Shown here in pieces: positions 2,841-40,931 of a stretch of 40,931 bases of DNA (position 1 is the first letter of the stretch; the number at the start of each line of letters is the position of its first letter). Origin of the DNA: a virus; the IMG/VR virus record IMGVR_UViG_3300045107_000822, positions 1 through 40,931 of that record; one strand, given 5' to 3'. The notes under the pieces were generated by a model that was not told the origin of the DNA, searched no databases, and saw only the letters and a list, made by a program, of their open reading frames with translations. The position numbers were made by a program, and so were the translations under genes.

Positions 2841-3661
2841 TGACGCCCCGCGACTACCCGCGCGAGATCGCGGCGCTCCTGTCCCGTCAGGACGCCGCCG
2901 GCCTCGCCGCGCTCTGCATCGAACTCCACGGGAAGCTCGCCGCGATCCTCGACGAGCGCGCCGGGGCCGCCGCCCGCAAGCGGCGGCAGCGGAAGCGTGA
3001 GCAGGGCGAGCTCTCCCTCGAGGTGCCGGTTACCAGGCCGGCCCTCGTGAGCAGCGCTGCGCCGGCGGTGCCGTCCGCCGACGCCCCATCCGTGCCCCTG
3101 CCAGGGGGAGCCGTGTCGACCGCGTTGCCAGACGCGCCGATCCACCGCACGCCCGCGGTGCCGTCCGCGGCGATCGACGCCGTGCCCGGGACTGCCATGT
3201 CCCGTGACATGGCGCCGTGTCCCGTGACGTCACGGGACATCTCCCCTTCTCCCCCCACACCCCCTACTACCCCTCTAGAACTACCGGCTGTTGCTACTGC
3301 CGCGCGCGAGGGGCTGCCCTGGTCGGTCCGGCTGACCGTCGCCGCCAACCGCGGCCTCGCCGTCGCTCAGCGGGTCCCGTTCGACCTGCTGCCGCGGCCG
3401 CTCATCTCGAGCGCCGGCTTCACCGCGACGATGGTCGCCGAGCTGCAGGCCGCCGGCGTGCCGCTCGAGTTCGCGGAGCAGCAGCTCTTCGAGCTCGCCA
3501 GCACGTGGAAGGGCGCGCAGCCGCCGAACTCGCTGCGCTACTGGCTCGCCCCCGTGCGCGACGCCTGGGCGCGGCAGCAGGAGCGCCAGCGCCCCGCCTC
3601 CACCCCGGCCGCCGGCACGCCCGCGGCCGCGCCCCTCACCCTCCGCCGCGTCACCGGATGA
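2840..3661 (+). CDS. Putative replication initiation protein (lambda O-like position)
   Basis: A 273-residue protein with no clear family match. Residues 1-60 are helical and end in a basic patch (ARKRRQRKREQ). Residues 60-157 form a Pro/Ala/Ser/Thr-rich linker. Residues 158-250 form a compact helical domain ('LPWSVRLTVAANRG' to 'WARQQERQ'). Two observations suggest a role like lambda O: the next overlapping gene encodes a DnaC-like helicase loader, and the linker DNA contains a 22-bp palindrome with an extra direct copy, as in origins embedded in initiator genes. The role is inference; it might instead be another replisome accessory protein. ATG overlaps the upstream stop (TGATG). Confidence 0.6.
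   Translation: MTPRDYPREIAALLSRQDAAGLAALCIELHGKLAAILDERAGAAARKRRQRKREQGELSLEVPVTRPALVSSAAPAVPSADAPSVPLPGGAVSTALPDAPIHRTPAVPSAAIDAVPGTAMSRDMAPCPVTSRDISPSPPTPPTTPLELPAVATAAREGLPWSVRLTVAANRGLAVAQRVPFDLLPRPLISSAGFTATMVAELQAAGVPLEFAEQQLFELASTWKGAQPPNSLRYWLAPVRDAWARQQERQRPASTPAAGTPAAAPLTLRRVTG
3197..3240. repeat. Iteron-like palindrome cluster inside the replication gene (candidate origin)
   Basis: The 11-mer TGTCCCGTGAC occurs at 3198-3208 and 3218-3228, and inverted at 3229-3239. The last two abut and form a perfect 22-bp palindrome. The two direct copies start 20 bp apart, about two helical turns. The first copy also lies in its own short inverted repeat (CATGTC/GACATG). A pyrimidine-rich tract follows at 3241-3275, then a locally AT-richer stretch around 3276-3300. 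Candidate initiator or repressor binding site. Confidence 0.6.
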
Positions 3662-17097: not shown

Positions 17098-18552
17098 ATG
17101 CCCATTCGTGACCAGATGATCGACCGTGCCGACTCCCTGTGGATCGGCGAGGACAAGTCGGGCGGCGCCAGCACGACGCTGAGCGCGGGGGCGACGGCCG
17201 GCGCGACGACGCTCGCGGTCGGCTCCATCGCCGGCATCAGCACCGGCATGGTGCTGCGCGTCGGCGGCGAGGACGCCATGGAGCTGGTGCAGGTGAACGG
17301 GACCCCGAGCGCCGGCAACGTGCCGCTCGCCAGCCCCGGCCTGCAGCGCGACCACGCCTCGGGGGAGGCGGTCGTCGAGCAGATCGTCTACGACCTGGGG
17401 GACGCGGCCGACATCATGGCCGAGCACTCCGCGCAGCAGACGAGCATCCCCGTCGCGACCTCGCCGCTGCCGTTCGGTACCCTCGCCGGCTACACCGAGC
17501 AGGGCGTGAAGTTCTCGATCCCGACGCAGACGATCCACCAGATCGCTCTCGCGCTCGGCATCCCCACCGCGCGGGTGCTCGGCGCGGGCACGCTCGCGGA
17601 TCCGACGCAGCTCTTCACCGACGGCTCCGACTTCAGCACGGCCACGCGGTGGGCGCACGCGGCCGCGGTGCGCGAGGATGGCTCGATCGTGCGCGTCCTC
17701 TTCCCCGCCTGCCAGAGCGACCACACGGTGCACGGCTTCAAGATCGCCCAGGGCACGCCGGCCCCGACGCCGGTGAAGCTCGTGGCGGGGGCGGAGCCGG
17801 CCTACTTCAACGGCGCCTGGAACGCGACGCCACCCCTCTCGCTCCTCCTCCGCGCGACGAAGGGGAAGCTCATCGAGCGGCTGGTCGAGGTCGGGCTCAT
17901 CGTCGACGACGCCATCCTGAGCACGACCGTGGCGAACGCAGCCGCGAAGGACGCGCAGAGCCTGACGCTCGCGAGCGGCACGGGCGCGGCCGCCGGCCAG
18001 TGGCTCCGCCTCTCCGGGCCCGGGCGCCGCGACGACCTCGTCTTCATGAACGCCCCGAGCGGCGCGGTCATGAGCCTCCGGACCCGCCTCGGCTACGCGG
18101 CCGCCGTCGGCGACCTCGCGGTGGTGCAGAAGCTGGTCCCCTTCGGCGGGTGCGCCGAGGAGGGCATCGACTTCCAGACCGGCGGGGAGGTCGCCGCGAT
18201 CCGGCTCGGGACCAAGCGCGGGCAGGTCGCGATCAAGAACCGGCGCGCGGAGGGCCGGCTCTCGTTCATGGTGGTCGACTTCACCCTCGACAACATCCGG
18301 CAGGCGCTGGGGCTCCCGACGGGCAACCTGTCGGGCAGCCGCCTCAAGGTGGACACCTCGCTCTTCACCAACTACGTCAACGGCGTCTACGTGAAGGGGC
18401 TCTACAAGGACGGCTCCACCTTCTGGACGGTGCTCGCGGGGGCGGATGCGATCGCGCAGGCGCTCTCGCTCGCCTTCACGAACGCCGACATCGCGAAGCT
18501 CCCGCTCGCCTACCAGGCGAACAGCGCGATGCGCTTCCTCGCGCACCCGTAG
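17098..18552 (+). CDS. Tail tube (major tail) protein with internal duplication
   Basis: A 484-residue protein in the major-tail-protein position, before the assembly and tape-measure genes. The two halves repeat each other at a constant offset of about 250 residues: STTLSAGATAGATTLAVGS...GMVLRVGG (from residue 25) against STTVANAAAKDAQSLTLAS...GQWLRLSG (from residue 275), and IHQIALALGIPTARVLG (G154) against IRQALGLPTGNLSG (G405). This indicates two fused tube domains, each with an extra small beta domain, as reported for T5 pb6, where three duplicated subunits form a ring normally built from six. Ordinary siphophage tube proteins are about half this length. Confidence 0.8.
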   Translation: MPIRDQMIDRADSLWIGEDKSGGASTTLSAGATAGATTLAVGSIAGISTGMVLRVGGEDAMELVQVNGTPSAGNVPLASPGLQRDHASGEAVVEQIVYDLGDAADIMAEHSAQQTSIPVATSPLPFGTLAGYTEQGVKFSIPTQTIHQIALALGIPTARVLGAGTLADPTQLFTDGSDFSTATRWAHAAAVREDGSIVRVLFPACQSDHTVHGFKIAQGTPAPTPVKLVAGAEPAYFNGAWNATPPLSLLLRATKGKLIERLVEVGLIVDDAILSTTVANAAAKDAQSLTLASGTGAAAGQWLRLSGPGRRDDLVFMNAPSGAVMSLRTRLGYAAAVGDLAVVQKLVPFGGCAEEGIDFQTGGEVAAIRLGTKRGQVAIKNRRAEGRLSFMVVDFTLDNIRQALGLPTGNLSGSRLKVDTSLFTNYVNGVYVKGLYKDGSTFWTVLAGADAIAQALSLAFTNADIAKLPLAYQANSAMRFLAHP

Positions 18553-19423: not shown

Positions 19424-22400
19424 GTGGCCGGCAAGGCGATTCGCGAGCTGTTCTTCGAGCTTCGGGCCCGCACCCAAGGGCTCGAGGAAGATCTGCGCTT
19501 CGCGGAACGCCGACTGGGGCAGACGGCGAAGTGGGTGATGGCGAACCCGGTCGTCGCCGTGGGAGCGGTCGGAGCGGCCTTCGTGACGGCGGGGCTGGCT
19601 GCCGCCAAGTTCGCGGAAGATCACGACAAGGCCATGCGGAGGGTGGGTGCGGCGACGGGAGCGACAGTCGAGCAGCTGAGGGCTCTCAGTCGCGCCCAAC
19701 GTGAGCTCGCAGTCGAAACCGGCCGGAGCATTGAGGAGCTGGATGCAGCGGCGCAAGCCGTAGCCCGAAAGGGCGTGCAGTCGCCCGAAGAGATCACGCA
19801 GCGCTTGCGCGCGGCAGCCGTGGCGGCGAAGGCCACTGGTGAGGAAATCGGGGCGGTGCTGGAGGGATTGGATCAGGCCCTCGACACGTTCTCGCTGACG
19901 AGTGACCGCTCCGGAGAGGTACTCGGGAAGCTCTTCGCGGCATCACGCGGCAAGGCCAGCCTCGAGGAGCTCTTCGAGGGGATCGCAAAGGCCACGCCTC
20001 TCATCCGCGCGAACCGGATGGAGCTCGACCAGTTCGCACGCGTACTTTCGGCCGCAATTGACCGCGGGTACGGCGGCAAGAAGCTGGCGCCTTTCCTCGA
20101 GTCACTGAACGCCACCGACTTCACGCGGCTCGCCACCGAAGCTCCGCGCGTCGCTCACGGCCTCGACCAGATGGTCGCTGCCGCCGAGCGCGCGGAGACG
20201 CCGAGCGACCGGTTTGCCAGGACCTGGGCCAGCATCAAGGACACATTCCTCGAGGTTGGCACGGTCGCCCTGCCGGCCGTCGAAGGTGGCCTTCGGGCCT
20301 TCACCGATGCGTGGATGGGAGCAAAGTCCGCGATCGGCGGCATGACAGTGAAGGATTACCTGCGCGTGCTGCGCCAGTCGGCTTCGGATGTCGGCACGAT
20401 GGACGAGATCGGCGGTCTCAACAACGCAATCGAGGCGGTCCGCGCAATCCGCGAAGCGGTGGCCAAGCGAGCGTTTTCGTGGGCATCGCTCGACCCGGTC
20501 CAGCGCGCTCAGGTTCGCGACTGGTTGTCGACCTTGCAGCAGGCTCAGGAGCGGCGGCAGAAGGCCATGAACGTCGCCGCCGACTCTGAGTTCGACTTTG
20601 CTCGCACTTTCGGATGGACGGCTGCGGATGTCTCTGCGGTCGCAGGGGCAGGAAGGCGTACTACACCGCGCACGGGCGATGACCTCGACCGCCGCGCGCA
20701 GCAGAAGGCGCTGCGGGAGCTGAACCAGCGCCTCGGCGACCTGTTCGACCGCTTCGTCTCGCCGGCGGGCGGCGGCGAGGCGGCCGGCGTCAACAAGCTC
20801 TTCGACCAGCTGCGCGCGGACGGCGAGGGCCTCCTCAAGGACAAGAGCCAGCTCGATGAGTGGGTGCAGGGCCTCGAGCGCCTGCGCGCCGCCGCGCTCG
20901 TCCGCGCCGACGACAAGACGATCCTCAAGGCTGTTGAGGAGCAGGCGAAGAAGTTCATGAACACGCTCGGCGACGAGCCGATGACGGCGTCCGAGATGGA
21001 GCAGGCGGAGAAGCTCATCGCGAGCCTCAAGGAGCTCGTGCGCCGCCTCGGGCCGGACACCGCGGAGGGGGCCGCTGCGCAGGAGAAGCTCAACACGCTG
21101 CAGCAGCGCTACCTCAAGGGCGTGGGCGATGCCCGCATCATCAAGCGGGAATCGCTGAGCGATGACCAGCTCGCCATCCAGCGGCTGCAGATGCAGGCGC
21201 AGCTGATCGGGAACGCGGTCACGGGTGCGCTGCAGCTGGCGAGCGCGTTCGGCATGGTGGACGAGAAGACGGCCCGCGTGATCCAGAACCTGTCGCAGGT
21301 CGGGACGAACATTCCCGGCTTCATGAAGGCGCTCGAGGCCTACAACAACCCGACCACCGGGGGCAGCCTGAGTCAACTGTCCGAGGTGGCGGCATTCGGA
21401 CTGTCGATCGCGGGCGGCCTCGCCGGCCTGCTCGGCGGCCTCCTCGACGACGGGGGGGCGGAGCGCCGCCGTGTGCTCGAGGAGAACACGGCGGCGCTCG
21501 CGCGGCTCACCGACCACATCGGCGACCTCGCCGGCAGCAACGTCATGGGGAGCACGATCACCGCCGGCAAGGCGGTGGCCAACCGGTATGCGGGGACGAT
21601 GCCGGAGATCCCCGCCATCAATCCCTTCAACGGCGCCCAGCGCACCCAGGCCGCGCTGGCACAGGCCCAGTGGCTCGCCAACGTGAAGGCGGCGTTCGCG
21701 GCGCAGGGGCTCTCGGGGACGAAGCTGGCGGAGCTGGCGCAGGCGCTCGGCATCACCCTCGACGGCACGGCGGCGTCCTACCAGAAGCTGCTGCAGGCCA
21801 TCAAGGCGGCGGACCTGGCGGCGTTCACGGACACCTTCGCCGGCAGTCTCGCGCGCCTCGGCGCAGAGCTCAACGTCTACAACGTCACGGACCCGACCGA
21901 GAAGCTGCGGCGCACCGTGAAGGTGCTCACCGACACGAAGACCGGGATCCCCGCACTGGCGACGGCGTTCGCCGGGCTCGACCTCGGCAACGCCAGTGAC
22001 CGCGCCGTCGCGATCGCGCGCCTTCAGAACCTCTTCGAGGCCCTCGCGGCCGGCTCGCTCGAGACGGGGGGCGCGAACATCAGCGAGGCGCTGCAGGCCA
22101 TCCAGGACCTGCTCGCGCAGCTGCGCGGCCTCAACGGTACCACGACCGAGGGCGGGGGCCAGAGCGGCTTCTCCGTGAGTCGGTCGATCACGGAGTCTTC
22201 GGCGGAGGACCTCATCGGGCTCGCGCGCTCGCAGGTGATGCTCCTCGACGCGCTGCTGGCCCACGTGGCCGCCATCCGGACCGCGATCGCGCTCGGGCCG
22301 CAGCTGCCGCCGGCGACGGGGGGCGGGCTCCTCCCGGGCGCGGTCATCCACCTCACCGTGAACGTCCAGGCCGCGCCGGGCAGCGATGCCACCGCGATCG

Positions 22401-22501
22401 GGACGCAGGTCGGCAACGCCGCCGGCACGGCCATCCTCGACGCCCTCCTGGGGCGGTCCCTCGCGCTCACGCTGTACGCCCGCGGCCAGCTCACCGCCTA
22501 A
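19424..22501 (+). CDS. Tape measure protein
   Basis: A 1025-residue protein that sets tail length and takes part in DNA ejection. The N-terminal third has the typical tape-measure core (FAEDHDKAMRRVGAATGAT, helical repeats, KATGEEIGAVLEGLDQAL, RSGEVLGKLFAASRGKASLEEL), then long helical and Ala-rich regions with hydrophobic stretches (about residues 655-685) and a Gly-rich C-terminus. At roughly 0.15 nm per residue the tail would be near 150 nm. Codon use changes within the gene: 19424 to about 20690 has many A/T-ending codons, while the rest is almost purely G/C-ending, suggesting a recombinant junction. GTG start is directly adjacent to the upstream stop. Confidence 0.9.
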   Translation: MAGKAIRELFFELRARTQGLEEDLRFAERRLGQTAKWVMANPVVAVGAVGAAFVTAGLAAAKFAEDHDKAMRRVGAATGATVEQLRALSRAQRELAVETGRSIEELDAAAQAVARKGVQSPEEITQRLRAAAVAAKATGEEIGAVLEGLDQALDTFSLTSDRSGEVLGKLFAASRGKASLEELFEGIAKATPLIRANRMELDQFARVLSAAIDRGYGGKKLAPFLESLNATDFTRLATEAPRVAHGLDQMVAAAERAETPSDRFARTWASIKDTFLEVGTVALPAVEGGLRAFTDAWMGAKSAIGGMTVKDYLRVLRQSASDVGTMDEIGGLNNAIEAVRAIREAVAKRAFSWASLDPVQRAQVRDWLSTLQQAQERRQKAMNVAADSEFDFARTFGWTAADVSAVAGAGRRTTPRTGDDLDRRAQQKALRELNQRLGDLFDRFVSPAGGGEAAGVNKLFDQLRADGEGLLKDKSQLDEWVQGLERLRAAALVRADDKTILKAVEEQAKKFMNTLGDEPMTASEMEQAEKLIASLKELVRRLGPDTAEGAAAQEKLNTLQQRYLKGVGDARIIKRESLSDDQLAIQRLQMQAQLIGNAVTGALQLASAFGMVDEKTARVIQNLSQVGTNIPGFMKALEAYNNPTTGGSLSQLSEVAAFGLSIAGGLAGLLGGLLDDGGAERRRVLEENTAALARLTDHIGDLAGSNVMGSTITAGKAVANRYAGTMPEIPAINPFNGAQRTQAALAQAQWLANVKAAFAAQGLSGTKLAELAQALGITLDGTAASYQKLLQAIKAADLAAFTDTFAGSLARLGAELNVYNVTDPTEKLRRTVKVLTDTKTGIPALATAFAGLDLGNASDRAVAIARLQNLFEALAAGSLETGGANISEALQAIQDLLAQLRGLNGTTTEGGGQSGFSVSRSITESSAEDLIGLARSQVMLLDALLAHVAAIRTAIALGPQLPPATGGGLLPGAVIHLTVNVQAAPGSDATAIGTQVGNAAGTAILDALLGRSLALTLYARGQLTA

Positions 22502-33536: not shown

Positions 33537-33791
33537 ATGGTCCCACCTGCCACCCCCACCCGATTCATCCTGCTCGCGCGCACGCACATCATCATCGCCG
33601 GCGTGGTGGTGCGCGAGGGGCAGCGCGTCTGCGTTGACCTGCTCGCCCCGGCCGGTCGCCAGGTGCGCATCATGAAGGACACGCCGCTGACGCCCGGCGC
33701 GGTGCTCGGCGCGATCGTTGACGGCGCGCTCATCCCGCTCGACGACGCTTCTTCGCAGGCGGTGGAGGAGCTGCGGAAGGCGGCGGGGTAA
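33537..33791 (+). CDS. Small hypothetical protein, antisense-overlapping the repressor gene end
   Basis: An 84-residue protein with a beta-rich pattern (RFILLARTHIIIAGVVVREGQRVCVDLL) and a plausible composition. ATG at 33537; an in-frame TTG at 33528 is possible. Its last 62 bases overlap the 3' end of the convergent repressor gene. It might encode a small regulator, or be a spurious frame in GC-rich DNA. Confidence 0.4.
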   Translation: MVPPATPTRFILLARTHIIIAGVVVREGQRVCVDLLAPAGRQVRIMKDTPLTPGAVLGAIVDGALIPLDDASSQAVEELRKAAG

Positions 33792-34203
33792 CGTCGCGCG
33801 CGTGGAACTCCGTCACGGCGCTCACCTCGGCAGGCGCCGTCTCACGCATCGACGCTTCCAGCTCACGACGCTGCGCCTCCACGGCGGCCGCGAACACCTC
33901 AGCGGCGAACCGACCGGCGCGCTCCCACTGCTCAAGTCGGTAGCGGCGCAGGATGTCCGGAACGTCCGGCAGGTGCTCGGCCGCCCGAATCGGGCGCGAA
34001 CCGAATAGCAGCCACTCCGGCTCGCGCCCGAGGGCCCGAGCGAGTCGCCAGATCGTATCAAGGTCGGGCTCGGAAGCCTCAAGCTCCCAAGTAGATACGG
34101 CCGCGTAGGACGCCCCGACCAGCTCACCCAGGCCAGCCTGAGTGAGCTTGCGCGCCACGCGCGCCTCCCGAATGCGTTGGCCCCACCCTCTTGACGAATT
34201 CAC
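33730..34203 (-). CDS. XRE-family repressor (CI-like), lacking a peptidase domain
   Basis: A 157-residue protein. Residues 7-65 form an HTH_XRE domain (IREARVARKLTQAGLGELVGASYAAVSTWELEAS, then LARALGREPEWLLFG). The C-terminal part is helical (residues 80-120) and ends in a Pro/Ala-rich basic tail (PPPPAKKRRRAG). The S24/LexA-like autocleavage domain of lambda CI is missing, so induction should use another route. GTG start at 34203; transcription diverges from the Cro/Ner-like gene across 34204-34267. Confidence 0.85.
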   Translation of the reverse strand: MNSSRGWGQRIREARVARKLTQAGLGELVGASYAAVSTWELEASEPDLDTIWRLARALGREPEWLLFGSRPIRAAEHLPDVPDILRRYRLEQWERAGRFAAEVFAAAVEAQRRELEASMRETAPAEVSAVTEFHARDVTPPPSAAPPPPAKKRRRAG

Positions 34204-35044: not shown

Positions 35045-35584
35045 ATGACCGCTGTGTCGATCGTCGTCGAGCCAGCCGCCGCGCGCACCCTCGCGGATGC
35101 GACGGGCTACCCGGGCACCGGCACCGACGCGCCGCTCACCCTCGAGCGCGTGCACCAGGAGGCCGACGAGGAGGGCGCCCCGCGCATCATCCGCGAGGCG
35201 ATCACCCTCCCCAACGCGAAGCTCTGCGCGCGGCGCGTGGGCTCCCGGAAGCGGGAGTCCCTCTTCCTGCACACCGCCGGCAACCCCGTGGTCACGGTCG
35301 GGCTCGAGCTCTCGCGCGACGACCTGCTCGCGCTCGACGAGCTGCTCCCGATCTACCCGGACAAGGTCGTCCTCCTCGGCGCGATGCAGCGGCTGCACGC
35401 GCAGCTGCTCGAGGCCCGCACGGCCGCGGCGCAGCTCGAGGTCGACCGGGCGGCGCTCGCGCGGCAGGCGGAGCAGGACCGCGCCTGGGCGCAGGAGACG
35501 ACGGCCCGGCTGGCCGACATGGAGACCACGATCGCCACGCTCACCGCGCAGCTGCAGCGCGCCGAGACCCGGAGCGGGTCGTGA
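35045..35584 (+). CDS. Hypothetical protein with C-terminal coiled coil
   Basis: A 179-residue protein. The N-terminal 120 residues are alpha/beta (APRIIREAITLPNAKLCARRV, SLFLHTAGNPVVTVGLELSRDDLLALDELLPIYPD). Residues 120-175 form a coiled coil (AMQRLHAQLLEARTAAAQLEV ... TIATLTAQLQRAE). Possibly an oligomeric scaffold for the replication or recombination proteins encoded next to it. ATG 35045 is preferred; GTG 34958 is an alternative. Its stop overlaps the clamp-like gene start (GTGA). Confidence 0.55.
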   Translation: MTAVSIVVEPAAARTLADATGYPGTGTDAPLTLERVHQEADEEGAPRIIREAITLPNAKLCARRVGSRKRESLFLHTAGNPVVTVGLELSRDDLLALDELLPIYPDKVVLLGAMQRLHAQLLEARTAAAQLEVDRAALARQAEQDRAWAQETTARLADMETTIATLTAQLQRAETRSGS

Positions 35585-36534
35585 GCGCGGCCACCCCCGA
35601 AGTGGCGGCGATGACGCTCGCCCTGCCGGCCGCGCTCGCAGCCCTCGGCTGGCGCAACGCCTTCCTCGCCACGGGGCAGGACGACGAGCGTCCCGCCCTC
35701 TACCGCACCCTCGCCGTCGAGTTCTTCCCGCGCGGCGTGCAGTTCGTGGCGACGAACGGGATCCTGCTGCTGCGCACCTGGGTGCCGACCCGCGCCCCCG
35801 AGGGGGAGCACATCGCCCGGATGCCGGAGCTCGACGAGGCGCCGGAGACGGCGGTGGTGGTCTCGGACCGCGAGCGGTTCGCGATCGGCTTCATGGGGAC
35901 CCTGTACCGCACCGCGAGCGCGGAGGGCGGGTCGGGGCTGGATGTCGAGCTCGTGGTCGAGCCGGTCCCGGACGACGAGGCGGAGCCCGCCCTGGGCGAG
36001 GCCTTCGCGCGCCGGCGGCTCACCCTGCGAGCGCTCGGGCAGGCGCTGCACTGCACGCTGCGAGAGGAGGACTTCCCGAACTGGCGCGAGGCGCAGGCCG
36101 GGCGCGGGCTCGACGGTACCGAGCTGGTGGACCAGATGCGGATCGCCGTCGGGCAGTTCAAGACGGTGGGGCAGCTTCGCGGCGTGTCGTCGCTCGAGTG
36201 CAGCTTCGCTGGCGTGAACGGCGCGATCGCCCTGTACGCGATCGGCGAGCTCGAGGTGCGCGGCCTGATGATGCCGATGCGCCAGGACAAGGCGGAGGTC
36301 GAGGCGCGCGAGAAGGCCCGCCTGCGCGACGCGCTGCGGCGAGGCGATCGCCTCGTGTCGCAGCTCGAGGAGGCGCTGGCCCCCGAGAACATGACCCGCG
36401 CCTTGGGGGAGCTCGAGGCGGAGGGTGACGACCGGAGCCTCGCGGCGCAGATGCGCCGGGGGGAGGTCTCGATCGAGGTCAACGGCCGCCCAGTGGCGCC
36501 GCCGACGGCCCGCCCCACGAAGAAGGAGAGCTGA
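35581..36534 (+). CDS. Shortened beta-clamp (DnaN)-like protein with C-terminal extension
   Basis: A 317-residue protein with two signatures of bacterial sliding clamps. One is RPALYRTLAVEFFPRGVQF followed by VATNGILLL, which corresponds to the start of clamp domain II with the VATDGHRL motif. The other is GLMMPMR at residues 229-234, matching the conserved VMPMR end of DnaN. Only two of the usual three clamp domains would fit before that motif. About 83 charged helical residues follow it. It may tether polymerase or recombination enzymes, or antagonise the host clamp. The fold is inferred from these motifs and not established. Confidence 0.55.
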   Translation: MSAATPEVAAMTLALPAALAALGWRNAFLATGQDDERPALYRTLAVEFFPRGVQFVATNGILLLRTWVPTRAPEGEHIARMPELDEAPETAVVVSDRERFAIGFMGTLYRTASAEGGSGLDVELVVEPVPDDEAEPALGEAFARRRLTLRALGQALHCTLREEDFPNWREAQAGRGLDGTELVDQMRIAVGQFKTVGQLRGVSSLECSFAGVNGAIALYAIGELEVRGLMMPMRQDKAEVEAREKARLRDALRRGDRLVSQLEEALAPENMTRALGELEAEGDDRSLAAQMRRGEVSIEVNGRPVAPPTARPTKKES

Positions 36535-36537
36535 CCC

Positions 36538-38493
36538 ATGCCGAAGACGCGCGCGGCCGCCCCAGCGGCCGACAACCAGATCGACTTCACGATCGCGATC
36601 CCCGAGGCCGCCAAGGCCCCGACGATCGTGCAGATCCCGCGCAGTGCGATCGTGCCGGATCCGGACAACCCCCGCCTCGAGGCCGACGCGGACCTCCGCG
36701 CCTCGATCGCGAGCCAGGGGATCCTCGAGCCGCTCACGGTGTTCCCCGCCCTCGGCGGCTACCAGCTCGTCGACGGCGAGCGCCGCTGGCGCGCGGCCGA
36801 GGGCGTGCTCGAGTCCCTGCCCTGCATCGTGCGCGAGGATCTCGCGGACCCGGCGCGCCGGCTCGCCGCGCAGCTGGTGGCGAACACGGGGAAGCCGCTC
36901 ACGCCGATCGAGTGGGGCCGCGCGGTGCGCCGCCTCCTGGACGCCGGCGCCGGCTCCCTCGAGGAAGTCGCCCGGCAGCTCGGGAAGCCGCGCTCGACGA
37001 TCGCGGAGCACGCGAAGCTGCTCGACCTCGGCCCCTGGGTGCCCCTGATCGAGCGTGGGCGCGTGCCGAGCTCTTGGGCGGTGCGGGTGCTCTTTCCCTA
37101 CGCCGGCTGCCCGGACGCGGTGCACGCGGCGGCGCTGGCGTCGCCCTCGCTCCTCGAGTTGTCCGAGGACGGGGTCGAAGGCGACACCATCGACGGCTTC
37201 GAGGCCGACGTGCGGCAGGCCTACCGCCCGCACCTCTACCCGATCGGGAAGTCGAAGGACGACGAGCGGCCGCGCTTCTCGACCAGCAAGCATGACGCCG
37301 AGTGCAGCTGCGGCGGCATCACGGTGGAGCTCGACTTCCGGGGGAAGCGGAAGTGCTGCGGCAACCCCGAGTGGTGGAAGCCGCTCGACGCGGCCGCGAA
37401 GAAGGCCGCCAAGGCGAAGGAGAAGGCGAGCGCGAAGGCGGCGCCGGCCCGGCCCAGCCGGCCGAAGGGCCCCGTCTTCGGGAAGCTCCCGGAGGGGCAC
37501 GAGCGCCTGCAGGCGAAGTCGTTGTACGAGGCGCCGAAGGGCCACGTGTGGCTCACCGAGTTCAACGGCTGCTGGGCGACCCGCGACCGTCAGGGCGGGG
37601 AGTGGGATGCGCGCGTCGTGGTCGCCTCTGCCACGCCGGCCGAGCTGGCCCGCGTCGTGACGCGCGAGGGCGAGCGCGTCGCCGTGAAGACGTCGGCGCT
37701 GCGCGATGCACAGAGCGAGTGGAAGGCGCGGTGGGAGGCGCGCGCACAGGCGCTGGCCGCCGAGGTCGACGCGCGCGCGCAGGCGTTCGCGCCCCTGAGC
37801 GATGCGGTCGCGCGCGCGGTGGTGCGCCTTGCGTTCGCGGACGACACCTGGCGCGCTCGCCAGCTGCTCGCGGCCTACCTGCCGGCGGCCGAGAAGCACC
37901 TGAAGGAGAGGGACCTGACGCCGCACGTTTCGCTCCACGACCACGACGCCGCGACGCTCGCGGGCCGGCTGCTCGCGTCCGGCGGCAACACGATCGAGCA
38001 GATGCTGCAGGACGAGCAGGAGGCAGCGCGGAAGGAGATCAGGGCCTCGCCCGTGCCGTTCCTGGGCGCCGAGCCCAAGGTCAAGGCGCCGACGGCCAAG
38101 GCGAAGCAGACGGTGCCGCAGAAGGTGCCGGCGTACATGGCGCCGATGCAGCCGTCGGCCGCGCTGGCGGCGATCGTGGGCGACGCGCCGCTGACGCGCG
38201 TGGAGATCACGAAGCGGCTGTGGACCTACATCCAGAAGCAGGGACTGCAGGACAAGAAGAACAAGCGGATGATCCACGCCGACGAGCTGCTTCAGCCGAT
38301 CTTCAAGGCCCGGTCCGTCAACATGTTCGACATGACGAAGCTGGTGAGCAAGCACCTGAAGCCCACGGCTGACGCCGCCAAGGCGCCGAAGGCCGGGAAG
38401 GCGAAGGCCGCCGCGCCGGCGCACGAGCCGCTGTGGGATGACGACGACGAGGAGCTCGACGAGGAGCCCCTCGACCTGGACGAGGAGGAGTAG
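36538..38493 (+). CDS. ParB-type N-terminus fused to a C-terminal SWIB/MDM2 domain
   Basis: A 651-residue protein. Residues 29-115 are a ParB/Srx-like domain: IPRSAIVPDPDNPRL, LRASIASQGILEPLTVFP, and VDGERRWRAAE (GERR at 80-83). A helix-turn-helix follows (about 140-163, SLEEVARQLGKPRSTIAEHAKLL). A Cys cluster (C256, C258, C273, C274) may bind zinc, and a Lys/Ala-rich linker spans about 280-310. Residues 538-609 match a SWIB/MDM2 domain (SAALAAIVGDAPLTRVEITK, then LWTYIQKQGLQDKKNKRMI, then SVNMFDMTKLVSKHLKP). The last 18 residues are nearly all acidic. ParB domains bind DNA and CTP; bacterial SWIB domains are usually stand-alone or fused to topoisomerase I. This fusion is unusual. Its role (DNA compaction, partition, transcription control) is unknown. 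Confidence 0.85.
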   Translation: MPKTRAAAPAADNQIDFTIAIPEAAKAPTIVQIPRSAIVPDPDNPRLEADADLRASIASQGILEPLTVFPALGGYQLVDGERRWRAAEGVLESLPCIVREDLADPARRLAAQLVANTGKPLTPIEWGRAVRRLLDAGAGSLEEVARQLGKPRSTIAEHAKLLDLGPWVPLIERGRVPSSWAVRVLFPYAGCPDAVHAAALASPSLLELSEDGVEGDTIDGFEADVRQAYRPHLYPIGKSKDDERPRFSTSKHDAECSCGGITVELDFRGKRKCCGNPEWWKPLDAAAKKAAKAKEKASAKAAPARPSRPKGPVFGKLPEGHERLQAKSLYEAPKGHVWLTEFNGCWATRDRQGGEWDARVVVASATPAELARVVTREGERVAVKTSALRDAQSEWKARWEARAQALAAEVDARAQAFAPLSDAVARAVVRLAFADDTWRARQLLAAYLPAAEKHLKERDLTPHVSLHDHDAATLAGRLLASGGNTIEQMLQDEQEAARKEIRASPVPFLGAEPKVKAPTAKAKQTVPQKVPAYMAPMQPSAALAAIVGDAPLTRVEITKRLWTYIQKQGLQDKKNKRMIHADELLQPIFKARSVNMFDMTKLVSKHLKPTADAAKAPKAGKAKAAAPAHEPLWDDDDEELDEEPLDLDEEE

Positions 38494-38495
38494 CG

Positions 38496-38774
38496 ATGCG
38501 ACGCACCATGAGCCAGCGCGAGGCGCGTGACTGGAAGCGGCGCGCCCTCGCGGCCGAGAGCAGGCTGCGGCACCGGGAGGGGGCGATCTTCGCGGCCTAC
38601 GGCGGCGATGTGCACCTCGGGCACCTGCCGGCGACCGAGAAGATCATGGAGGCCGTGCGGGTGGCCGAGGCGCTCGGGTGCGTCACGGTGGCGCGTCGCA
38701 CCACGCGCTTTGGTGGTCCCGCCCTCGAGTTCATGGCCATCGCCCAGACCCCGCCGAAGGTGGCCGGCGCGTGA
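38496..38774 (+). CDS. Hypothetical small protein
   Basis: A 92-residue protein with a basic N-terminal helix (SQREARDWKRRALAAESRLR) and a mixed C-terminal part (IMEAVRVAEALGCVTVARRTTRFGG). ATG is preceded by GAGGAGGAG inside the end of the ParB-SWIB gene, which provides the ribosome-binding site. Not recognised. Confidence 0.6.
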   Translation: MRRTMSQREARDWKRRALAAESRLRHREGAIFAAYGGDVHLGHLPATEKIMEAVRVAEALGCVTVARRTTRFGGPALEFMAIAQTPPKVAGA

Positions 38775-39292
38775 CCACGTTCATCGCCTCCCTCGAGACC
38801 GAGGTTCCCGTGAGCCGGTCCATCAACCACATCCGTGAGCTGGTGGAGCGGTTCGGGGCGCGCGAGTTCTCGACGCACTACGATGCGGCCACCCGCCCGA
38901 TCGGCATCGGCTTCACGGTGCGGGACCCGCGCGTGACCGGCGACGAGCCCGTCTACCTGCCGGTGCAGCTGCGCGCGCCGACCGAGACGATCTACAAGGC
39001 GCTGCTGGCGTCGAAGCGCCGCAGCTACTTCATCGCCACGCAGGAGCGGTGTCGTGCGCAGGCGGAGCGCGTGGCGTGGCGGAACCTCCACGACTTCGTG
39101 CGCGCCTCGCTCATCGGGGTCCAGACCGGCATCATGTCGCTCGGCGAGGCCTTCATGGCGTCGCTGGTGGTGACGACGCCGGCGGGACCGGAGCGCCTGG
39201 GGGAGATCGTCGCGCGGGGGAGCCTGCTGCAGCCCGTGCGCGGGCAGCTGCGGCTCCTGGCGCCCGGGATGCGGGAGGGCCCGACGCCATGA
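38771..39292 (+). CDS. Hypothetical phage early protein
   Basis: A 173-residue protein resembling an uncharacterised phage group (HIRELVERFGAREFSTHYDAATRPIGIGFTVRDP; then YLPVQLRAPTETIYKAL; AERVAWRNLHDFVRASLIGVQTGIMSLGEAFMASLVV). The order 'beta domain, then AWRxLxDFV helical segment' is shared by many temperate phages, but no function is known to me. GTG start overlaps the previous stop by 4 bases. Confidence 0.65.
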   Translation: MTTFIASLETEVPVSRSINHIRELVERFGAREFSTHYDAATRPIGIGFTVRDPRVTGDEPVYLPVQLRAPTETIYKALLASKRRSYFIATQERCRAQAERVAWRNLHDFVRASLIGVQTGIMSLGEAFMASLVVTTPAGPERLGEIVARGSLLQPVRGQLRLLAPGMREGPTP

Positions 39293-39642
39293 GCTCCACG
39301 GCCACCCTCGAGGAGGTCCTCGCCGACGCCGACGAGCAGGCGCAGATCCTGCGCCGGTCGGGCTACGAGCGCCATGCGGACTCGATCGCGGAGCTGGTGA
39401 GCGCGGTGCGGGGGGCCGCGCGCGAGTTCCTCGAGTTCGCCCCGGAGACGGAGGCGATGCTCTTTTCCGGGCAGACCCGGAACTGGCTGCGCGATCGGTT
39501 CGCCGGCTGGGAGCGCCGGGGCCACGCCAAGAAGGAGAAGGGGATGCGCTACTACCGGTTGTGCGTGCTGCCGCGGCGGGCCGAGCCCGCGCGGGCGCGT
39601 GAGGCGGGCCGCGCGGCGGCACGGCAGGGGGCGGCATCGTGA
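39289..39642 (+). CDS. Putative excisionase-like or small DNA-binding protein
   Basis: A 117-residue protein. The N-terminus is acidic and helical; the C-terminal half is basic, with a winged-helix-like pattern (LFSGQTRNWLRDRFAGWERRGHAKKEKGMRYYRLCVLP). It overlaps the integrase start by 4 bases. Recombination directionality factors are often small, basic and coupled to the integrase, so this is a candidate; the fold is inferred and not recognised with certainty. Confidence 0.5.
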   Translation: MSSTATLEEVLADADEQAQILRRSGYERHADSIAELVSAVRGAAREFLEFAPETEAMLFSGQTRNWLRDRFAGWERRGHAKKEKGMRYYRLCVLPRRAEPARAREAGRAAARQGAAS

Positions 39643-40931
39643 CCGCCCGGAAGAAGCGGCGCGAGCTGCTGCGCCTGGGGAAGCGGGGCGACCTGATCCG
39701 GATCGTCGCCGATCGCCGGGCGGGGCGCGTGATCGCCTACTACCGGGACGCGGCCGGGCTCAAGCACAAGCAGAGCTGGCCGGACACCCCGGAGGGGCGC
39801 ACCGAGGCGTTGGCGTGGGGCGAGGGGTTCTTCGAGGAGCGGAAGCGGATGGCCGAGGAGGCCGCCCGCGCCGGCGCCGCGGGCCCGGCCCCGATCACGC
39901 TCGGGGAGCTGTGGCAGCGCTACGCGGCGCTCGAGTTCGAGCACCTGCGCGCGGCGACGCGCCGCACGTACACGTGGCAGTGGGCCCGCTTCATGCGCTT
40001 CTTCGGGCCGGAGCGGCTGGCCGTGAGCCTCACCAAGGCCGACCTGGTCGAGTTCCGGGTGGGGACGCGGCAGGCCGGGATCGTGTCGAACCAGATCCGG
40101 CAGATGCTCGGGACGGCCCGGCTGGTCCTCAACTGGGGGATCGAGCACGAGCTCCTCGCGCACCACGCGCTGGTCGGGTTCCGCTGGAAGCAGCATCGGG
40201 ACGAGCAGCCCCTCGCGCCGGCGGAGTACACGGCGGAGGAGTTCGAGCGGCTGCTGGCGGCCCTGTCGCCGCAGCACCCGAAGCAGTGGCGCGCCTGGGT
40301 GTTCCTGATGCTGGCCGGGCACCACGGGCAGCGCGCCAACGCGGTGCAGCACCTGCGGTGGGCCGACGTGGATCTCGACGCCGGCGTGCTCACGTGGGCC
40401 CGCGAGTACCAGAAGCAGGGGAAGGCGCTCGAGCGCCCCATCACGTGGCCGATCCGGTCCGCGCTGCTCACCGCCCGCCACTGGCGGGAGACGGTGCGGC
40501 AGGGGCCGGTGCTGGCGCGGCGGAAGGTGGCCGCGCGGCCGGAGCGCCTCGACGCGGCCGACTGGGTGCTCTTCGCCGAGGGCGACAAGGCGCGCCCGGT
40601 GAGCTACACGAGCATGCACTACCAGCTGCGCCAGGCGGAGACGCGGGCGGGGGTGCCGCACCGCCCGTTCCGCGGCTTCCACGGGCTGCGGCGGATGGTG
40701 GTGGGCGAGACGATCGCGGCGACCGGGGACCGGATGGCGGGCCTCGAGGTCGTGGGCGACACGGACCCGAAGCAGCTGAAGAGCTACGACCGCCGGCAGC
40801 AGGAGCGGGTGCAGGCGGCGCTGCAGGCGCTCGACGAACGGCAGGCGGCGACGACGGCGTTGCCGAAAGTGTCCCCGAAGTTTCCCGAAATGACGAACGC
40901 GCCCGAGGGCGCGTTGGAGGTCGAGGACTGA
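39639..40931 (+). CDS. int: Tyrosine recombinase/integrase
   Basis: A 430-residue phage integrase that recombines attP with attB. Residues 1-90 are a basic arm-binding-type N-terminus; about 95-190 form the core-binding domain (ITLGELWQRYAALEFEHLRAATRRTY). The catalytic domain has R232 in GQRANAVQHLRWADVD, a Lys in the beta-hairpin (YQKQGKALE), H348 and R351 in HGLRR, and the nucleophile Y383 in LKSYDRR. The usual His (or Trp) before the Tyr is Asp374 (VGDTDPKQ), an uncommon change. The last 25 residues look disordered. GTG start; the stop is the final base of the window. Confidence 0.9.
   Translation: MTARKKRRELLRLGKRGDLIRIVADRRAGRVIAYYRDAAGLKHKQSWPDTPEGRTEALAWGEGFFEERKRMAEEAARAGAAGPAPITLGELWQRYAALEFEHLRAATRRTYTWQWARFMRFFGPERLAVSLTKADLVEFRVGTRQAGIVSNQIRQMLGTARLVLNWGIEHELLAHHALVGFRWKQHRDEQPLAPAEYTAEEFERLLAALSPQHPKQWRAWVFLMLAGHHGQRANAVQHLRWADVDLDAGVLTWAREYQKQGKALERPITWPIRSALLTARHWRETVRQGPVLARRKVAARPERLDAADWVLFAEGDKARPVSYTSMHYQLRQAETRAGVPHRPFRGFHGLRRMVVGETIAATGDRMAGLEVVGDTDPKQLKSYDRRQQERVQAALQALDERQAATTALPKVSPKFPEMTNAPEGALEVED
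40863..40915. repeat. Short repeats and hairpin at the integrase 3' end
   Basis: CCGAA occurs at 40863, 40875 and 40885 (spacing 12 and 10 bp). AACGCGCC (40896-40903) and GGCGCGTT (40908-40915) form an 8-bp stem with a 4-base loop. This lies inside the integrase coding sequence near the presumed att junction. It may be integrase arm-type sites, a weak terminator, or chance. Confidence 0.35.

What the first reader, a model, noticed from the sequence alone, without database searches (positions are those of the whole stretch)
36538..38493. ParB-like domain fused to a SWIB/MDM2 domain in a phage protein
The N-terminus carries ParB motifs (DNPR, GERRW) and a helix-turn-helix. Residues 538-609 carry a complete SWIB/MDM2 pattern (LTRVEITKRLWTYIQKQGLQ, KRMIHAD, FDMTKLVSKHLKP). 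Between them are a Cys cluster, a Lys-rich linker and, at the end, an acidic tail. Bacterial SWIB domains are usually small stand-alone proteins or fusions to topoisomerase I. Combining one with a DNA-loading, CTP-binding ParB-type module suggests a chromatin-like architectural or segregation factor. I know of no described function for this fusion.
Basis: partly seen in the sequence, partly recalled or inferred. Interest (0 to 1): 0.9.

Follow-up and report, generated by a model that had tools for sequence, protein, structure and literature searches.

The report
Phage ParB protein with SWIB tail
Several unrelated phages, one of them integrated in a Gemmatimonadota chromosome, make a protein that joins a ParB-type DNA-binding module, usually found in chromosome segregation, to a SWIB domain, best known from chromatin; the pairing seems to have arisen more than once and may organise phage DNA, but nobody has tested what it does.

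Summary
One uninterrupted 651-codon gene (36538-38493) encodes a ParB N-terminal domain and helix-turn-helix, a long middle, and a C-terminal SWIB domain (Pfam E 3.1e-25; model pLDDT about 97; fits mouse BAF60a SWIB at 1.4 A). It is not a frameshift or assembly error: the same architecture occurs in four other IMG/VR phage records (one read across its contig ends) and in a 50-kb prophage with recognisable att sites in tRNA-Asn of a Gemmatimonadota genome. The ParB parts do not form one clade (AU p about 1e-4), so the pairing probably arose more than once. Two close relatives end in a lysine-rich tail instead of SWIB, which suggests a swappable DNA-binding end. No ParA gene was found, the ParA-binding motif is absent, and five of six neighbourhoods carry an integrase, so partition is unlikely. 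My best explanation is an orphan ParB-type dimeric DNA-loading protein whose basic lysine/SWIB end holds or packs phage DNA; that function is inferred. CTP use is unproven: this protein and one relative lack the ENxQR motif. No paper in the library describes the pairing; a 2025 survey of ParB fusions does not mention SWIB in its main text. A new variant of a known kind.

The parts
36538..38493 (+). ParB-SWIB fusion gene, 651 aa
36523..36528 (+). ribosome-binding site AAGGAG
   Evidence: sequence
36625..36849 (+). ParB N-terminal (NTP-binding) domain, residues 30-104
   Evidence: Pfam PF02195 1.3e-11; AF2
36775..36786 (+). box II (P motif) GERR, residues 80-83
   Evidence: alignments
36880..36894 (+). 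box III position: ANTGK (residues 115-119) instead of ENxQR
   Evidence: alignments
36895..37035 (+). ParB helix-turn-helix domain, residues 120-166
   Evidence: Pfam PF17762 3.3e-5
37288..37380 (+). Cys cluster (CSCGG...KCCG), within residues 251-281; possible metal site
   Evidence: sequence; metal binding inferred
37381..37497 (+). Lys/Ala-rich stretch, residues 282-320, net charge +7
37636..37908 (+). long helices 367-433 and 437-457, possible coiled-coil dimer region
   Evidence: AF2 model, pLDDT about 75-87 in most of it; dimer role inferred
38053..38130 (+). Lys-rich linker before SWIB, residues 506-531
38143..38358 (+). SWIB/MDM2 domain, residues 536-607, pI about 10
   Evidence: Pfam PF02201 3.1e-25; AF2, Foldseek
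38365..38490 (+). Lys/Ala stretch then acidic C-terminal tail; the acidic tail is not seen in the other five fusions
35581..36534 (+). upstream gene, 317 aa, 3 bp before the fusion start; by eye like a divergent sliding clamp, not confirmed
38678..39292 (+). downstream gene of phrog_17260 (unknown function), also near the fusion in L017
39639..40931 (+). tyrosine integrase
   Evidence: Pfam PF00589, PHROG integrase

Best explanation
It is a phage-encoded orphan ParB-like DNA-loading protein. Shown: the domain order ParB NTP-fold, HTH, a middle with a predicted long helical region, Lys-rich linker, basic SWIB; recurrence in phages; a swappable C-terminus; no ParA. Inferred: it acts as a dimer, held by the helical middle instead of the usual ParB C-terminal domain. 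The HTH loads it at a phage-specific site under control of a bound nucleotide (probably CTP). The basic Lys/SWIB end grips DNA without sequence preference, as stand-alone SWIB proteins with H1-like tails do, so that it coats or bridges phage DNA while the genome is recombined or replicated. In the window and G001 versions the box III change suggests binding without efficient hydrolysis, as in PadC.
For: Six proteins with both domains. In the clade of L016/G408 two relatives carry the same ParB and middle but a Lys-rich H1-like tail in place of SWIB. SWIB has pI 9.5-10.4 in the five phage-record fusions and is preceded by 60 residues with 9-18 K/R. Stand-alone SWIBs often carry H1-like Lys/Ala tails. 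Plant SWIB-4 with an H1 motif binds DNA, compacts nucleoids and complements an E. coli H-NS mutant (PMC4154389); a Waddlia SWIB protein is found along the whole chromosome by ChIP-seq (PMC6426960). G001 context is Gp157, RecT, a 95-aa gene, the fusion, with DnaB farther on. No ParA. B. subtilis ParB E111Q (ENLQR) binds CTP and closes but does not hydrolyse; PadC lacks the motif (PMC8494293).
Against: No biochemical data exist. SWIB has the MDM2 fold, whose best-known activity is peptide binding, so its role could be protein recruitment. In Chlamydia TopA the SWIB domain is dispensable for complementation of an E. coli topA mutant (PMC12445093, section heading). The middle region is poorly modelled, so dimerisation by a coiled coil is a guess. 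The acidic tail of the window protein would oppose DNA binding. No repeated parS-like site was found.
Confidence: 0.4

Rival explanations
1. The SWIB domain is a peptide-binding module (MDM2-like cleft) that recruits a host or phage protein, such as a topoisomerase, RNA polymerase or recombination protein, to the DNA on which the ParB part is loaded.
For: The model matches MDM2-ligand structures; MDM2 SWIB binds FxxxWxxL peptides (PMC8769072, PMC12102759). SWIB is also fused to topoisomerase III in Pseudomonadota, to topoisomerase I in Chlamydia, and to a protein kinase in G408. SWIB is the best conserved part, 60-64% between window and G001 against 35% for ParB.
Against: Close relatives replace SWIB by a Lys-rich tail, which is not a peptide-binding fold. 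No partner is known.
Confidence: 0.27
2. It is a transcription regulator or anti-silencer like KorB, VirB or Noc: a ParB-type protein that loads near promoters and spreads, with SWIB displacing or competing with host nucleoid proteins.
For: Fold matches to KorB and Noc; VirB is a CTP-using ParB-family anti-silencer (PMC10676424 abstract). The gene lies between a repressor-like gene (33730-34203) and the integrase.
Against: Length and C-terminus unlike KorB, VirB or Noc; Noc model cut-off not met (62 against 315 bits). No repeated operator-like palindrome near the gene.
Confidence: 0.2
3. It is a partition (segregation) protein for an extrachromosomal prophage or phage plasmid.
For: ParB family membership.
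Against: No ParA over the cut-off in five phage records; no ParA-binding motif in the six sequences; integrase near the fusion in window, G001, L016, L018 and G408; the G408 copy is chromosomally integrated.
Confidence: 0.06
4. Frameshift, read-through or assembly artefact joining two genes.
For: None found. The G001 case alone depends on joining contig ends.
Against: Even codon-position GC along the whole gene and the same architecture in independent assemblies, four of them in one uninterrupted ORF inside a contig besides the window.
Confidence: 0.01

Closest known systems
ParB-CTPase-fold orphan fusions of phages and mobile elements (Kaljevic et al. 2025, PMC12704722)
   Same: PF02195 fold with box II, orphan (no ParA), phage-borne, fused to another domain
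   Different: SWIB is not named as a fusion partner in the main text (DUF3850, DUF4417, methyltransferases, HNH, CBS and others are); the supplement could not be read
phrog_4715 / phrog_6218 ParB-like partition proteins; PRTRC ParB (TIGR03734)
   Same: N-terminal and, for L017/L018, part of the middle align
   Different: PRTRC score far under the cut-off; PHROG profiles match only the ParB part and some of the middle, and no SWIB family was found in PHROGs
Stand-alone SWIB proteins with H1-like tails (bacteria, phages, plant SWIB-4)
   Same: Lys-rich stretch plus basic SWIB
   Different: No ParB; about 80-180 aa
Topoisomerase-SWIB fusions (topo III of Pseudomonadota, topo I of Chlamydia)
   Same: C-terminal SWIB on a DNA-acting protein
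   Different: Catalytic topoisomerase instead of ParB
PadC (Myxococcus)
   Same: ParB-like fold lacking ENLQR; binds CTP without hydrolysis (PMC8494293)
   Different: Different partner domains; the window protein keeps the GERR glutamate that PadC lacks

Membership tests
ParB-CTPase fold (PF02195) | PF02195 score over the gathering cut-off | tested here: met
   44.8 bits against 26.3
ParB-CTPase fold (PF02195) | box II P motif GxxR | tested here: met
   GERR, residues 80-83; G80, R82, R83 invariant
ParB-CTPase fold (PF02195) | box III ENxQR | tested here: not met
   ANTGK in window, LNQGK in G001; ENxQR in L016-L018 and ENLKR in G408. The survey says box III is often absent in orphan ParBs, so this does not exclude membership
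ParB-CTPase fold (PF02195) | nucleotide binding | not testable with these tools
   needs purified protein
Canonical ParABS ParB | TIGR00180 domain architecture | tested here: met
   76.7 bits against 58.45
Canonical ParABS ParB | ParA partner | tested here: not met
   PF13614 over cut-off in 0 of 5 phage records; records may be fragments
Canonical ParABS ParB | ParA-binding motif (L/F/I)G(K/R)G(L/F/I) | tested here: not met
   read by eye in the N-termini of the six fusions
Canonical ParABS ParB | ParB C-terminal dimerisation domain (PF23552) | tested here: not met
   no such hit in the Pfam scan at E 0.1
Canonical ParABS ParB | parS 16-mer site | tested here: not met
   best match has 4 mismatches
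SWIB/MDM2 domain (PF02201) | profile over cut-off and whole-model coverage | tested here: met
   88.2 bits against 25, model positions 2-74 of 74
SWIB/MDM2 domain (PF02201) | SWIB/MDM2 fold | tested here: met
   AF2 and Foldseek, 1uhr TM 0.76, 1.4 A
PRTRC ParB (TIGR03734) | score over the curated cut-off | tested here: not met
   42.9 (window) to 133 (L018) bits against 278.6
Noc (TIGR04285) | score over the curated cut-off | tested here: not met
   62.2 against 315 bits

The most novel reading that the evidence does not exclude
Phages of Gemmatimonadota and perhaps other hosts use a nucleotide-switched ParB clamp, armed with exchangeable chromatin-type ends (SWIB or an H1-like Lys tail), to build a phage-specific nucleoprotein structure during recombination and replication: a ParB-based genome organiser without ParA.
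Probability: 0.3. Interest if true: 0.8.

Novelty: new variant of a known kind. Interest (0 to 1): 0.6.

Why it matters
The ParB fold is now known as a widely reused nucleotide switch, and SWIB is a domain of eukaryotic chromatin remodellers whose bacterial role is unclear. A recurrent fusion of the two in phages gives a small, testable system: what SWIB does at DNA when a loading module brings it there, and whether ParB clamps work outside segregation. The natural swap of SWIB for a Lys-rich tail in close relatives is a ready-made domain-exchange experiment.

Tried and rejected
Close relatives of the whole protein in IMG/VR by short exact peptide patterns: none; SWIB patterns worked instead; a scan with the five-fusion alignment added no new record. 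SWIB in the INPHARED phages by tblastn: none. Middle region against phages: none. Fusions in plasmids: no place covering 80% of the query. Fusions among the 80 best bacterial SWIBs: none. In a sample of 398 Pseudomonadota 33 genomes have SWIB, with frames under 300 aa or about 1000 aa (two read: topo III), none of ParB-fusion length; in 297 Acidobacteriota none. parS-like repeats: none. The SWIB tree (82 columns) does not resolve whether the fused SWIBs share one origin. A SAP-like end in L118/L120/L122 suspected by eye: Pfam and Foldseek do not support it. Upstream gene as sliding clamp: suspected by eye, not confirmed.

Full report
What is there. The window is a 40,931-bp IMG/VR virus record with terminase, portal, major head protein and tape-measure genes and a tyrosine integrase at 39639-40931, so a temperate tailed phage. 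The gene at 36538-38493 is one open frame of 651 codons with a good ribosome-binding site and constant third-position GC (94-98%) in every 100-codon block. Pfam finds ParB_N (30-104), HTH_ParB (120-166) and SWIB (536-607), all above the curated cut-offs. AlphaFold2 gives a confident ParB N-domain/HTH and a very confident SWIB; the part between is largely uncertain, apart from long helices at 367-433 and 437-457 at medium confidence. Foldseek finds ParB, Noc, KorB and PadC for the first part and BAF60a SWIB and MDM2 for the second.

Is it an isolated oddity? No. A SWIB search of IMG/VR gave 22 records other than the window. In three, L016, L017 and L018, the SWIB is the C-terminus of a 606-655 aa ORF with ParB_N and HTH_ParB above cut-offs. 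In a fourth, G001, SWIB runs off one contig end and a ParB ORF off the other; joining the ends gives one in-frame ORF of 747 aa. No terminal repeat was seen, so the circular join is an inference, though an in-frame join of these two domains by chance is unlikely. The other 18 viral SWIBs are small proteins (80-168 aa) with no ParB in the fetched flanks; a few of them start at a contig end.

In bacteria. The 80 SWIBs of the genome collection closest to the window are all stand-alone in effect. A sampled survey found SWIB in 33 of 398 Pseudomonadota, 119 of 249 Gemmatimonadota and 45 of 297 Acidobacteriota genomes. The long frames were read in Gemmatimonadota: one, in G408, is a true ParB-SWIB of 617 aa; the rest are read-in frames or a kinase-SWIB. 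Two of the about 1000-aa frames of Pseudomonadota were read and are topoisomerase III-SWIB. G408 was drawn from the phylum of the genome of L076, whose title says Gemmatimonadaceae. A profile search of 394 genomes of G408's class found no second complete fusion.

The G408 copy is in a prophage. It lies beside an integrase that is beside tRNA-Asn. The sequence CTGTTAATCACCGGGTC inside the tRNA recurs 50 kb away as the start of a displaced tRNA 3' half, with no whole tRNA there: attL and attR. Tail proteins of this prophage resemble window 17098-18552 (1e-42) and the tape measure 19424-22501 (4e-10). So a phage with tail genes related to the window's, and its own version of the fusion, has lysogenised a Gemmatimonadota bacterium. 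The window phage's own host is not determined.

Evolution. In a tree of the ParB parts, holding all six fusions as one clade is rejected (p-AU 7.9e-5), also after removing the long-branched G001 and other long rows (1.5e-4). Long branches remain, so this is good but not perfect evidence that ParB and SWIB came together more than once. Inside one well-supported clade (100/99), two proteins of Gemmatimonadota, G748 (558 aa) and G525, share the ParB and the middle with L016/G408 but end in a Lys-rich tail with no SWIB; for the four fusions of that clade alone one origin is not rejected (p 0.064). The natural reading is that SWIB and the Lys-rich tail fill the same place. SWIB is basic in all five phage-record fusions and follows a Lys-rich stretch.

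Nucleotide site. The window and G001 have ANTGK/LNQGK where ParB has ENxQR; both keep GERR. In B. subtilis ParB, E78 (GERR) and E111 (ENLQR) are both needed for CTP hydrolysis but not for binding, and PadC, which lacks ENLQR, binds CTP without hydrolysis (PMC8494293). The other four fusions keep ENxQR or a near form. The 2025 survey shows that specificity (CTP, ATP, GTP) cannot be read from sequence, so the nucleotide is open.

Context. G001: Gp157, RecT, a 95-aa gene, the fusion, a putative phage metallopeptidase; farther on integrase and DnaB. L016 and L017: a HerA-like ATPase 3-4 kb upstream. Window and L017 share a phrog_17260 neighbour. No ParA over cut-off in the five phage records. The gene thus tends to sit in the early DNA-metabolism/integration region.

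Mechanism. Shown: domains, recurrence, swappable end, prophage location, no ParA. Inferred: dimeric loading at a phage site with nucleotide control, and non-specific DNA grip by the Lys/SWIB end, with plant SWIB-4 and the Waddlia SWIB protein as analogues. The main rival is recruitment of a protein through an MDM2-like cleft.

Novelty and limits. Among 5.39 million open papers none joins SWIB and ParB in this sense; the ParB-fusion survey does not name SWIB in its main text, but its data sets could not be read. The search by peptide patterns misses distant cases, so six is a lower bound. I rate it a new variant of a known kind.

Noticed in passing
L134:2099-3532 (G408:C5, around 34295): A Ser/Thr protein kinase (Pkinase 2.4e-23) with a C-terminal SWIB domain (1.8e-23) in the same Gemmatimonadota genome as the prophage fusion; another unusual SWIB fusion.
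   Followed up: partly
window 3198-3239: Three exact copies of TGTCCCGTGAC, two forming a perfect 22-bp palindrome (TGTCCCGTGACGTCACGGGACA) and one 20 bp upstream; the 22-mer with up to 3 mismatches was matched in 1 of 100 shuffles. Possible operator or ParB-type site, far from the fusion gene.
   Followed up: partly
window 35581-36534: Gene 3 bp upstream of the fusion looks by eye like a divergent DnaN sliding clamp (FPNWREA; GLMMPMR), but the PHROG match is only E 0.09 and the PDB search finds nothing.
   Followed up: partly
L148, L149 (G748:C18, G525:C68): ParB proteins with the same middle as L016/G408 but ending in a Lys-rich histone-H1-like tail instead of SWIB.
   Followed up: yes
L118, L120, L122: 770-880 aa phage ParB-like proteins with a conserved C-terminus (HTKEQLEALGKELGVYIDGAKSK...) that resembles a SAP motif by eye; Pfam and Foldseek do not confirm it.
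   Followed up: partly
L142, L143: Topoisomerase III proteins of Pseudomonadota with a C-terminal SWIB and Lys-rich linker; SWIB-topoisomerase fusions are thus not confined to Chlamydia (there topo I).
   Followed up: partly
L015, L020, L021, L029 and others: Stand-alone SWIB proteins in IMG/VR phages, some with H1-like AKKA tails; PHROGs has no SWIB family and the INPHARED search gave no match.
   Followed up: partly
L145:7308-8054 and L018:9323-10222: DUF5131 protein in both the G408 prophage and the L018 phage (41% identity), not far from the fusion.
   Followed up: no
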